A stretch of DNA of 64,000 nt, from the IMG/VR virus record IMGVR_UViG_3300037117_000082, positions 51,041 to 115,040 of that record. The stretch is one strand, 5' to 3'. Source of the DNA: a virus. Of this stretch, positions 34,976-60,516 are shown in pieces. The first letter of the stretch is position 1, and each line of letters begins with the position of its first letter. The notes beneath the pieces are model-generated. The model was not told the DNA's origin. It was given only the letters and a program-made list of their open reading frames with translations, and searched no databases. The position numbers and the translations under genes were made by a program.

Positions 34976-35544
34976 ACCTTTCAACCATCGTGATCCCGGA
35001 GGACGAGGCCCGCGCACGGCTGGCCGAGTACGAGGCCGCGGTCCGCGAGGAACGCAACGCCCAGGACGAGGCGCTGGCCATGGGCTACCGGGCCGCGGTG
35101 CGCGGCCTGCCGATCATCAGGCTGTCCGAGACGGTCGCCGCCGGCGGCTTCTTTGACGACGGCCTGCCGAGGATCGCGGTCGTGCGCGCCGGCGAGACCG
35201 AATGCTACGTGCGGTGGGACGGCAGCGCCCTGATGTACAACGACGGGGTGTCCCAGAACCGGGGGGCGCTGGTCGGCAAGTGGACAGTGCGCGTGCCCAT
35301 GGCCGCCGCGAAGCCCGCGAAGGTTACGTGGAAGGGCGGCAGCACGATCGTTCCCAGCATCCCGCCGCGCCACCGGCCGAAGCCCCGGCGGCTTAAGCAC
35401 TGCCACATCCTGTGGGAAGTCGAGTCGTGGACTCCCGTCCCGCCGCACGACCCGGCCCTGATCCGGCATATCCGGGGCGACCTTTGGGCCGTGCTGGCCG
35501 TGTGGGACCTCAGCGAGCTTGAGCGCGCCGTACTGGCGATGTGA
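34972..35544 (+). CDS. Hypothetical protein
   Basis: 190 residues from ATG 34972 after GGGAGGAG. Helical first 60 residues (EDEARARLAEYEAAVREERN), then a mixed domain with FDDGLPRIAVVRAGETECYVRWDGSALMYND. No recognised family. Confidence 0.6.
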   Translation: MNLSTIVIPEDEARARLAEYEAAVREERNAQDEALAMGYRAAVRGLPIIRLSETVAAGGFFDDGLPRIAVVRAGETECYVRWDGSALMYNDGVSQNRGALVGKWTVRVPMAAAKPAKVTWKGGSTIVPSIPPRHRPKPRRLKHCHILWEVESWTPVPPHDPALIRHIRGDLWAVLAVWDLSELERAVLAM

Positions 35545-35789
35545 CGGTGAACTCCAGATCCAAGCCGGACTTGGAGATCACTGGTAGTTCGCCGCGCAAG
35601 GACTGGCGCACGAAGGAAACCCGCCAGCGGACCCACCTGGTAGGCGTCCGCCTCAGCCCTGCCGAGTCGGCCCTACTCCGGGCTGAGGCAAAGCGGACAG
35701 GACTGACGATGGCCACGGTGCTGCGAGAGGCGTTCCTGGCCAGCGTGAAAGCGGGTATAACGCCCGGCCCGCCGCGCTCTGACCGGTAG
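35541..35789 (+). CDS. RHH/MobC-like DNA-binding protein
   Basis: 82 residues from a GTG overlapping the previous stop. RQRTHLVGVRLSPAESALLRAEAKRTGLTMATVLREAF fits a ribbon-helix-helix domain of the type in MobC/plasmid regulators. Basic N-terminus. Could repress the operon it ends. Confidence 0.65.
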   Translation: MTVNSRSKPDLEITGSSPRKDWRTKETRQRTHLVGVRLSPAESALLRAEAKRTGLTMATVLREAFLASVKAGITPGPPRSDR

Positions 35790-35876
35790 TGGGTCAGTGA
35801 AGCGCGAACCTCTGGCAGTTGCCGTATGAGCGGCAGCCAGGAATCTCCGTCGTTTACGGCGAGAGGATGTCAATTC

Positions 35877-36044
35877 ATGGCAGGCTGCAAGAGCCTGTCC
35901 ACCAGCCAGCTCCGGGAGCATGAGGCATCGGGAGCATGCCGGGAATGCAGCGAGCGGGCACGAGGGATCGCCGCGGAGGCTGCCGCAGCCGAGCCCGGAC
36001 GCGCGCTCCTGGCCATCCTGGACGGGACAGAGAGGGAGCGATGA
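35877..36044 (+). CDS. Small cysteine-rich protein
   Basis: 55 residues from ATG 35877; a site GAGAGGA lies about 9 bases before it, which is better than the upstream ATG at 35826. Contains MAGCKSL..GACRECSE. Overlaps the phosphoesterase by 4 bases. Function unknown. Confidence 0.5.
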   Translation: MAGCKSLSTSQLREHEASGACRECSERARGIAAEAAAAEPGRALLAILDGTERER

Positions 36045-58429: not shown

Positions 58430-58458
58430 GCACCTCCGGGTGATGGTTGGTGATGTGG

Positions 58459-58464
58459 TACCGT
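58459..58464 (+). promoter_or_regulatory. Leaderless promoter -10 of RHH-tnpB
   Basis: TACCGT lies 6 bases before the ATG at 58471, in the same pattern as the -10s at 2296 and 25292; no ribosome-binding site precedes the ATG. Confidence 0.5.
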
Positions 58465-58470
58465 GGCAGC

Positions 58471-58629
58471 ATGGTTGATAGCCACGCGATGACGATCCGG
58501 CTGCCAGGGCCGGTCTATGAGGCCCTGCGCCGTGAGGCGTTCGACCGGCGCGTGCCGATGACCGAGATCATCACCGAAGCGCTCCAGGCGCACATGGATG
58601 ACTACTTCTCGAAGCATCCGAAGGCGTAG
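58471..58629 (+). CDS. Ribbon-helix-helix (CopG/Arc-like) regulator upstream of tnpB
   Basis: 52 residues. SHAMTIRLPGPVYEALRREAFDRRVPMTEIITEALQAHMDDYF is a clear RHH fold: strand, helix, turn, helix. The stop is five bases before the TnpB ATG, so the two are one unit. Likely represses its own promoter and so TnpB synthesis; inference from the arrangement. Confidence 0.7.
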   Translation: MVDSHAMTIRLPGPVYEALRREAFDRRVPMTEIITEALQAHMDDYFSKHPKA

Positions 58630-58634
58630 CGCCC

Positions 58635-59834
58635 ATGTCCCGCTACCGGCTGACTCCGACGCCTGCGCAGGAAGCCGTGATGCGGGAGCATTGCGCCCAT
58701 GCGCGGTTCGTTTGGAACCTCGGCCATGAGCAGCGGCTGATGTACCGCGCCGGTCGCGGTCGCACTCCCAGCTACCTGGAGCAAAGTCGGCAGCTAGCAG
58801 AGGCTCGCGCCGCTGAACCGTGGCTTGCGGCCGGGGCGCATGTGGTTCAGCAGCAGGCACTGAGAGATCTCGATGAGGCTTGGCGGTACTTCTTTTCCGG
58901 AAAACACCGCAAGCCGACTTGGCGGAAGGCATTCCGCAAGGAAGGTTTCCGCATTACCGGCAAGCTAGGCCGGGACTGGAAGCTTCGGCGCCTGTCAAAG
59001 CATGTTGGTGAGGTGTGGATCACCAAGATCGGCTGGGTGCGCTTCCGCTGGTCGCGCGCCGTGCCGCCGGCTAAATCGTTCCGGGTCACGGTTGATGGCG
59101 CTGGGCGTTGGCACATTGGATTCGCCGCGTGGCCCGCCCCGGCAACACCCGGTCCGGGAATCGGCGAGGTCGTCGGCATTGACCGGGGCATTGCGGTCTC
59201 GGCTGCCCTGTCCACTGGCGAGATGCTGCACTGCCCCGGTCTGAGCGAAACTGAGCGTGCGCGCATCCTGCGGCTGGAACGCAAGTCCGCCCGTCAGCGC
59301 ATTCGCGGACAGCCCGCATCTAGCCGGCTTGATCGCACCTACCGGGCCGTCGCTAAGCTGCGAGCGCGCGCGACAGATCGACGCAAAGACTGGGTGGAAA
59401 AGGTTTCCACGGACATCGCGCGCAGGTTCGACGTGATCCGGGTAGAAGATCTCAAGGTCAGGCATTTGACGCGCTCGGCAAGGGGATCCGCCGCTAGGCC
59501 AGGGCGTAATGTCCGCCAGAAATCTGTCGTAAACAGGGCCATACTCTCAAGCGGGTGGGCACCCCTGGTCTGTCGGCTTGAGGACAAGGCACCCGGCCGG
59601 GCGCAGAAGATCAACCCGCGCTACACATCCCAGCGGTGCTCGGAGTGCGGGCGCATCGCAGCTGAGAACCGCAAGAGCCAAGCGGTTTTCGCCTGCGTGG
59701 CCTGCACTTATACCGGCAACGCTGACGTGAACGCGGCCAAGAACATCGCGGCAGGGCATGCCGTGACTGCGCGGGGAGGTCCCCAGTTGGGGCCGCTGAA
59801 CCGCGAACCTCAGCTTGCGCTTCTATCTGCGTAG
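58635..59834 (+). CDS. tnpB: TnpB, IS605-type RNA-guided nuclease
   Basis: 399 residues. RuvC residues are intact: D183 (GIDRGI), E271 (VEDLKV) and D364 (NADVNAAKN). The zinc finger is C335-x2-C338 and C354-x2-C357. An N-terminal HTH/REC-like region (~1-60) and basic patches (RKAFRKEGFR) are present. All catalytic residues kept, so not a dead (TldR-type) relic. Guide RNA would come from the 3' end. Confidence 0.92.
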   Translation: MSRYRLTPTPAQEAVMREHCAHARFVWNLGHEQRLMYRAGRGRTPSYLEQSRQLAEARAAEPWLAAGAHVVQQQALRDLDEAWRYFFSGKHRKPTWRKAFRKEGFRITGKLGRDWKLRRLSKHVGEVWITKIGWVRFRWSRAVPPAKSFRVTVDGAGRWHIGFAAWPAPATPGPGIGEVVGIDRGIAVSAALSTGEMLHCPGLSETERARILRLERKSARQRIRGQPASSRLDRTYRAVAKLRARATDRRKDWVEKVSTDIARRFDVIRVEDLKVRHLTRSARGSAARPGRNVRQKSVVNRAILSSGWAPLVCRLEDKAPGRAQKINPRYTSQRCSECGRIAAENRKSQAVFACVACTYTGNADVNAAKNIAAGHAVTARGGPQLGPLNREPQLALLSA

Positions 59835-59835
59835 G

Positions 59836-59872
59836 CTGGAATCCTCGCCCTTTCGGACGGGGAGGATGTCAA
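59836..59872 (+). ncRNA. Predicted omega RNA 3' end (right end of the IS unit)
   Basis: After the stop, ATCCTC (59841-59846) pairs with GAGGAT (59862-59867) with inner CCC/GGG; GTCAA follows at 59868-59872. This matches the 3' hairpin of TnpB-associated guide RNAs (ending near GGATGTCAA). The guide would start at 59873; the transcript probably begins inside the tnpB 3' end. Confidence 0.6.
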
Positions 59873-59895
59873 GACGGCGTCAACGATGAAGGCGC

Positions 59896-60408
59896 CTAAG
59901 CCTGGAAATCCTCAAGGATCCGCGCTGCGATCCGCGCATCATAACGGAGTATGCGCTGATCAGCGTTCACACCCCTCGGCACGGCTACATCGTAGCTCAG
60001 GCGCTCTCCTGTGCCGTAGATCTGGCTGTAGCGGCCCGTCACGGGATCTGAAAGCATCACCGGATCCTGGCAACTTCGCAGTACATCCAAGATCGCATCC
60101 ACGATCACCGGGAACGAGGCATCAGGAGTCGGGTCGCTGTCGTCCTGGAACCAGACCGTCCAGATATCTAGCTGGTGCGTCATCGTCTTCCACCCGGACT
60201 GCGTAGTGCCCAGGTTGGGCACGGGCGCTCGCGGGAGAGACTGACGGCCTTCCGACCCCGTGGACGGCCAGACGTAGACGTGGGGGTCGAGCTGGTCTTC
60301 TTCCGGGTTCGGCGGGGTGACGAAGACCTCGAGCGGCGTGGCGTTGCCGGGGATCGGCATCCCGTTCAGGATGCTGTAGACCCAGGTCTGGGCTGTGAGG
60401 ATGGGCAC
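59896..60408 (-). CDS. Tail terminator-like protein
   Basis: 170 residues. TWVYSILNGMPIPGNATPLEVFVTPPNPEEDQLDPHVYVWPS and DIWTVWFQDDSDPTPDASFPVIVDAILDVLR are a pattern seen for the tail terminator/completion proteins in actinophages. Position between connector and tail tube supports it. Ends just left of the tRNA gene. Confidence 0.65.
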   Translation of the reverse strand: MPILTAQTWVYSILNGMPIPGNATPLEVFVTPPNPEEDQLDPHVYVWPSTGSEGRQSLPRAPVPNLGTTQSGWKTMTHQLDIWTVWFQDDSDPTPDASFPVIVDAILDVLRSCQDPVMLSDPVTGRYSQIYGTGERLSYDVAVPRGVNADQRILRYDARIAARILEDFQA

Positions 60409-60442: not shown

Positions 60443-60516
60443 TGCGGGGTGGCGCAGTTCGGTAGCGCGGCGGGCTCATAACCCGCAGGTCGCGGGTTCA
60501 AATCCCGTCTCCGCAT
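60443..60516 (+). tRNA. tRNA-Met(CAU), initiator-like
   Basis: Full cloverleaf: acceptor TGCGGGG/CTCCGCA, D arm GCGC/GCGC, anticodon arm GCGGG-CTCATAA-CCCGC with CAU, variable AGGTC, T arm GCGGG-TTCAAAT-CCCGT. The GGG/CCC pairs next to the loop are the initiator hallmark and the backbone resembles bacterial initiator tRNA. But the first base pair is U1-A72 instead of the open C1-A72 and CCA is not encoded. On the plus strand, opposite the late genes. Confidence 0.85.

What the first reader, a model, noticed from the sequence alone, without database searches (positions are those of the whole stretch)
58441..59895. RHH regulator fused in operon with an intact TnpB inside the late genes
A leaderless RHH gene precedes by five bases a TnpB with D183, E271, D364 and its zinc finger intact, followed by a guide-RNA-like 3' hairpin. 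There is no TnpA, and the unit lies against the late operon. A stand-alone TnpB with a dedicated regulator could act as a guide-directed nuclease or a superinfection-exclusion device rather than mere IS cargo. The predicted guide starts at 59873, GACGGCGTCAACG, and lies in the phage's own spacer.
Basis: partly seen in the sequence, partly recalled or inferred. Interest (0 to 1): 0.6.

Follow-up and report, generated by a model that had tools for sequence, protein, structure and literature searches.

The report
Phage guide-RNA nuclease with dedicated repressor
A bacterial virus carries a gene for an RNA-guided DNA-cutting enzyme (TnpB) paired with a small DNA-binding regulator, an arrangement that recurs in viruses and genomes of actinobacteria and suggests that some of these enzymes come with their own control switch.

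Summary
An RHH gene (58471-58629) lies 5 bp before an intact TnpB gene (58635-59834), followed by a covarying right-end/omega-RNA hairpin (59837-59872), antisense between two late genes of a 115-kb phage record. No Y1 TnpA was found in the record.

The pair is not unique. RHH genes sit directly upstream of 14 of 189 TnpB loci examined, all within the window's actinobacterial clade (14 of 70). Searching from the RHH side, 20 of 21 hits in 295 Streptomyces genomes lie beside a TnpB. In at least seven loci the left end lies outside the RHH. One 1,495-bp element (99.87% identical) sits at two different viral sites with its RHH. So the RHH belongs to a TnpB element variant, probably as a repressor; divergent pairs share inverted repeats over both starts.

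The window copy kept its right end but shows no left end, so it is probably no longer a normal IS.

New lead: the same phage has an orphan right end (35839-35873) without TnpB. Its 29-nt guide matches, uninterrupted, a related phage lacking TnpB, behind CCAC, the clade's TAM. That fits homing or phage competition, or a decayed insertion. Guide 1 has no known target. No activity was tested.

The parts
58471..58629 (+). RHH (Arc/CopG-like) gene, 52 aa, probable repressor of its own transcript
   Evidence: Pfam weak; AF2 model and Foldseek to Arc/CopG
58459..58464 (+). candidate -10 box (TACCGT) for a leaderless transcript
   Evidence: read by eye; no promoter test; no significant inverted repeat here (p 0.97)
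58635..59834 (+). TnpB, 399 aa, RuvC D183/E271/D364 and zinc finger intact
59837..59872 (+). right end / omega-RNA 3' hairpin ending GTCAA
   Evidence: covariation over 50 loci; CM hit 46.5 bits; fold z -2.03
59873..59892 (+). predicted guide 1
   Evidence: position after RE end; no target with TAM found
35541..35789 (+). second RHH-type ORF (NikA-like, 82 aa) before the orphan right end
   Evidence: Pfam NikA-like E 1.3e-6; no homologue in 10 viral records
35797..35829 (+). remnant of a tnpB 3' end (VKREPLAVAV*), body of tnpB missing
   Evidence: read; only one full TnpB in the record
35839..35873 (+). orphan right end / omega-RNA hairpin
   Evidence: CM 31.3 bits, E 3.5e-6 in the window; second of two in the whole record
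35874..35902 (+). guide 2: 29 nt identical to uninterrupted site in phage G001, there preceded by CCAC

Best explanation
The unit is a phage-borne derivative of an actinobacterial TnpB element that carries its own RHH regulator. Shown: TnpB catalytic residues, zinc finger and omega-RNA right end are intact; RHH genes recur beside tnpB in this clade and lie inside the element where the left end is kept; the window copy shows no recognisable left end. Inferred: the RHH dimer binds its own promoter and keeps the RHH-tnpB transcript low; TnpB with the RNA from its 3' end cuts DNA that matches the flanking guide next to a TAM (YCAY in this clade); in a phage this favours carriers over non-carriers during co-infection (homing or drive). 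It no longer moves as a normal IS.
For: Intact TnpB. RE hairpin covaries: 85.7% of cells paired, covariation 0.451 against 0.170 in shuffles, and the window scores 46.5 bits. RHH upstream in 14 of 189 loci, 0 of 119 outside the clade; elsewhere in 1.65 Mb only 2 RHH hits at E<0.01 against 13 adjacent ones. Reverse search: 20 of 21 RHH places beside TnpB. Same LE-RHH-TnpB-RE element at two sites. Inverted repeats in divergent spacers, 14 of 22 with p <= 0.05. Orphan guide matches the intact site of a related phage behind CCAC (95, 100, 105).
Against: The window's RHH is not found by an HMM of the other RHHs and shows no operator repeat (111), so its repressor role is by analogy. The four same-strand RHHs differ from the divergent family. 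No target for guide 1. No expression or cleavage data. Drive has been reported for plasmids (PMC11870625, abstract and discussion read), not here.
Confidence: 0.62

Rival explanations
1. Ordinary IS cargo in decay: a solo-TnpB insertion that lost its left end, with the RHH and orphan right end as leftovers and no present function.
For: No left end; a truncated second copy in the same phage; other viral records also hold TnpB-less or truncated right ends (L247, L248, L241).
Against: TnpB open, with all catalytic and zinc residues, and a right end scoring 46.5 bits; RHH open and 5 bp upstream.
Confidence: 0.28
2. The RHH is a chance neighbour (a phage repressor or orphan antitoxin) unrelated to TnpB.
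For: Window RHH is not detectably related by sequence to the other TnpB-linked RHHs.
Against: 5-bp spacing; RHH adjacency recurs, RHH hits elsewhere are rare, and same-strand RHH-tnpB pairs exist in L001, L191, L196 (53), the last inside a TCAT-left end-right end element (54, 105).
Confidence: 0.1
3. Domesticated TnpB acting mainly as superinfection exclusion against competitor phages.
For: Left end lost, nuclease kept; orphan guide matches related phage G001, which has neither TnpB nor right end.
Against: Guide 1 has no phage target; orphan RNA is 5'-truncated to about 77 nt before the guide, so may be inactive; one case only.
Confidence: 0.2

Closest known systems
Solo-TnpB elements of the IS200/IS605 superfamily (IS1341-like; NCBIfam guided_TnpB)
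   Same: TnpB fold and motifs, right-end hairpin giving the guide RNA, TAM-flanked left end in relatives, no TnpA in cis
   Different: Carries an RHH gene upstream of tnpB; the window copy has no left end
TnpB as plasmid gene drive (PMC11870625)
   Same: Guide records the insertion site and would target the IS-free allele; multi-copy replicon
   Different: Reported there for IS200/605 in plasmids; here a phage, with a regulator, and only sequence evidence
TldR, TnpB homologues exapted as RNA-guided transcription factors (recalled; seen only as a reference title)
   Same: TnpB lineage taken out of the transposon context
   Different: TldR is nuclease-dead (recalled); here D/E/D is intact
Arc/CopG ribbon-helix-helix repressors
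   Same: Fold match; in divergent relatives inverted repeats span both starts
   Different: Dedicated to a TnpB gene; window copy lacks a visible operator

Membership tests
IS200/IS605-superfamily TnpB | RuvC D/E/D triad and zinc finger | tested here: met
IS200/IS605-superfamily TnpB | Curated family score above cut-off | tested here: met
   NCBIfam guided_TnpB 192.1 bits, cut-off 100; Pfam PF07282, PF01385, PF12323 above cut-off
IS200/IS605-superfamily element | Right end / omega-RNA hairpin | tested here: met
IS200/IS605-superfamily element | Left end with TAM | tested here: not met
   No LE hairpin or YCAY at the expected place in the window copy; homology to related phages runs to 58440-58446
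IS200/IS605-superfamily element | Y1 TnpA in cis | tested here: not met
   solo-TnpB elements lack it too
TnpB nuclease | RNA-guided cleavage | not testable with these tools
   needs an assay
RHH repressor | Ribbon-helix-helix fold | tested here: met
   AF2 and Foldseek to Arc, CopG; Pfam below cut-off
RHH repressor | Operator repeats at own promoter | tested here: inconclusive
   Met in divergent relatives (14 of 22); not seen in the window (p 0.97)
TldR | Nuclease-dead RuvC (recalled) | tested here: not met
Homing element | Uninterrupted cognate site in a relative | tested here: inconclusive
   Unit 1: related loci differ, no exact empty site (21, 31). Orphan right end: met in G001

The most novel reading that the evidence does not exclude
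The phage runs a two-guide RNA-guided weapon: one repressor-controlled TnpB uses its own omega-RNA and a second, trans-acting orphan omega-RNA whose guide cuts a related phage that still has the uninterrupted site, so carriers displace competitors in co-infection.
Probability: 0.13. Interest if true: 0.87.

Novelty: new variant of a known kind. Interest (0 to 1): 0.62.

Why it matters
TnpB is the ancestor of Cas12 (established knowledge), and how its nuclease is kept in check is open. A recurring, element-borne RHH repressor gives a directly testable control switch. The orphan guide with an intact match in a related phage offers a natural test of whether TnpB works as a homing or competition device between phages, as has been reported for plasmids.

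Tried and rejected
Exact empty site for unit 1: related phage loci (L162/L173, L171, L172) lack the unit but carry other small antisense genes there, so no clean empty site. Guide 1 target: 10 exact 17-mer places in viral contigs, longest run 18, none with YCAY in front, read as chance; own record only the copy itself and one 3-mismatch site. Empty site of element L196: three 17-mer places, flanks not homologous. Close relatives of the window RHH in viral contigs: 19 stretches, none confirmed. Viral enrichment of RHH: 12 of 23 viral, 1 of 5 plasmid, 1 of 42 chromosomal clade loci, Fisher p 3.5e-6, but not significant on tree-independent pairs (median p 0.625) and the chromosomal set was drawn by similarity to the window; I do not claim enrichment. 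(L198 starts too near its contig end to show an upstream gene and counts as without RHH.) Rfam: no family reached its gathering score for the right end. Paper searches for TnpB with ribbon-helix-helix (3 papers), CopG (62: 4), IS605 with ribbon-helix-helix (112: 4), TnpB with regulators or phage or homing: passages read in PMC13092281, PMC8987985, PMC3119063, PMC11437467, PMC12669027, PMC6563490, PMC8303175, PMC11054128 describe no RHH-TnpB pair; the rest seen as listings only. Two key TnpB papers are not held, so novelty is limited to this library.

Full report
WHAT IS THERE. The window is bases 51041-115040 of a 115,040-bp virus record. At 58471-58629 (+) is a 52-aa ORF and, after 5 bases, a 399-aa TnpB at 58635-59834. 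D183, E271, D364 and the four zinc-finger cysteines are present and invariant in a 7-row alignment; NCBIfam guided_TnpB scores 192 bits and PDB matches are TnpB and Cas12f-like proteins. The small ORF matches Pfam RHH_1 below the cut-off, but an AlphaFold2 model from 13 TnpB-linked RHHs has pLDDT 90.9 and matches Arc, CopG and antitoxin RHH structures by Foldseek, though with E-values of 0.04 and above for this 52-residue chain. No Y1 transposase was found in the record.

GUIDE RNA END. I aligned 36-nt right ends from 50 clade loci, window left out. The 8-bp stem covaries strongly: 85.7% of cells paired, covariation 0.451 against 0.170 for shuffles and at most 0.199 for slid partners. The model finds the window's right end at 59837-59872 with 46.5 bits. 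Guide 1 therefore starts at 59873.

PLACE. Related phage loci from three contigs lack the unit (L162/L173, L171, L172). Homology to the window stops at 58440-58446 on the left and 59899-59923 on the right. Between these points the relatives carry small antisense genes (read by eye), so this is a cargo slot and gives no exact empty site.

IS THE RHH PART OF IT? Of 189 TnpB loci (161, 19 of the 21 after dropping two repeats, and 9 plasmid or phage loci), 14 have an RHH directly upstream; all 14 are among the 70 clade loci, 0 among 119 others. L187 and L206 are near-copies, and two of the 14 lie in one phage (G003). Four are on the tnpB strand (window, L001, L191, L196); ten are divergent, most with the RHH start 29 bp before tnpB. 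Pfam Arc matches 4 of 5 RHHs scanned, best E 2.9e-7. An HMM of all 14 hit 15 of 13,857 ORFs in 1.65 Mb at E<0.01: 13 are the adjacent ones and 2 lie elsewhere (L110's ORF exceeded my length limit). Leave-one-out recovered 12 of 14, not L110 (same reason) and not the window. From the RHH side, the L110 RHH has 21 hits in 17 of 295 Streptomyces genomes, and 20 of the 21 have TnpB sequence next to them, several truncated and some of a distant TnpB type. On a 61-row TnpB tree the RHH label needs 9 changes, at least 6 forced by well-supported branches: gained or lost repeatedly.

INSIDE THE ELEMENT. In L003, L187, L192, L195, L196, L206 and L208 the left-end hairpin lies outside the RHH, and by eye also in L110, L202 and L191. 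L187 and L206 share a 1,495-bp block at 99.87% identity, with different flanks on both sides, that contains left end, RHH, TnpB and right end. The RHH thus moves with the element. A pattern search gave left ends in 25 of 70 clade loci; I dropped 3 on inspection (L140, L198, L202), and all 22 others have YCAY just 5' of the element (TCAT, TCAC or CCAC). The window, L001 and L193 show no left end.

REGULATION. In 22 divergent spacers tested (9 of the 10, 13 of the 20), 14 have an inverted repeat with p <= 0.05 against base shuffles, arms up to 14 bp, over both starts. The CAT...ATG of the two start codons adds three bp for free, and some loci are near-copies. The window and the three other same-strand cases show none. 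Repression by the RHH is well supported by anatomy for the divergent form and by analogy for the window.

A SECOND RIGHT END. The model also hits 35839-35873 (31.3 bits, E 3.5e-6), one of only two in the record. Before it lie ten codons of a tnpB tail and an RHH-type ORF (NikA-like, E 1.3e-6), but no tnpB body. Its guide runs into the ORF MAGCKSL... In related phage G001 (113 kb, same as L162) this gene reads on without a break as ...LDRHFMAGCKSL...; 29 nt after the junction are identical, preceded by GCCAC. CCAC is the flank seen at L003, L187, L195, L201, L206 and L208. G001 has no TnpB and no right end. Site plus CCAC (22 nt) is found in no other viral contig. So an element of this kind probably once inserted behind a TAM in this gene, and the remaining RNA end still points at the intact allele. 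Whether the shortened RNA (about 77 nt) works is unknown; two other viral records also hold right ends without TnpB and one a truncated TnpB, so decay is a fair reading.

MECHANISM. Shown: intact parts, recurrent RHH, right end, missing left end. From established TnpB knowledge: the right-end RNA guides TnpB to TAM-flanked DNA. Inferred: RHH repression; drive or homing between phages, as reported for plasmids (PMC11870625, abstract and discussion). Guide 1 has no known target.

VERDICT. A new variant of a known kind: a TnpB element with its own RHH regulator, here in a phage and without its left end. No description of the pair turned up in the held papers, but key TnpB papers are not held.

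Noticed in passing
window 35541-35902: Orphan right end with NikA-like RHH ORF and tnpB tail, no tnpB body; guide matches intact site in related phage G001 behind CCAC.
   Followed up: yes
L184 5600-7100 (G003): TnpB element with divergent RHH sits between two similar gene ends (LPPPGFEWTTADRLAVAAL* and LPPPGYSWARGDRLAVAS*), as if the 3' end of the flanking phage gene were duplicated around it (read by eye).
   Followed up: no
L002, L200, L207, L184 11650-11720: TnpB genes without RHH share a GGCCCGGCAG...CCGGGCC hairpin leader and a following conserved stretch just before tnpB (by eye).
   Followed up: no
L188 and L203, upstream of tnpB: Divergent HTH-like ORFs with repeat sequences take the place of the RHH (by eye, no family search).
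   Followed up: no
window 60443-60516 (+): tRNA gene (Rfam 66 bits) about 600 bp from the unit, antisense among late genes.
   Followed up: no
L162 4500-4710; L171/L172 same slot: Related phages carry a different small antisense gene in the slot that holds RHH-TnpB here.
   Followed up: partly
L254: The one Streptomyces RHH of 21 without a TnpB beside it.
   Followed up: no
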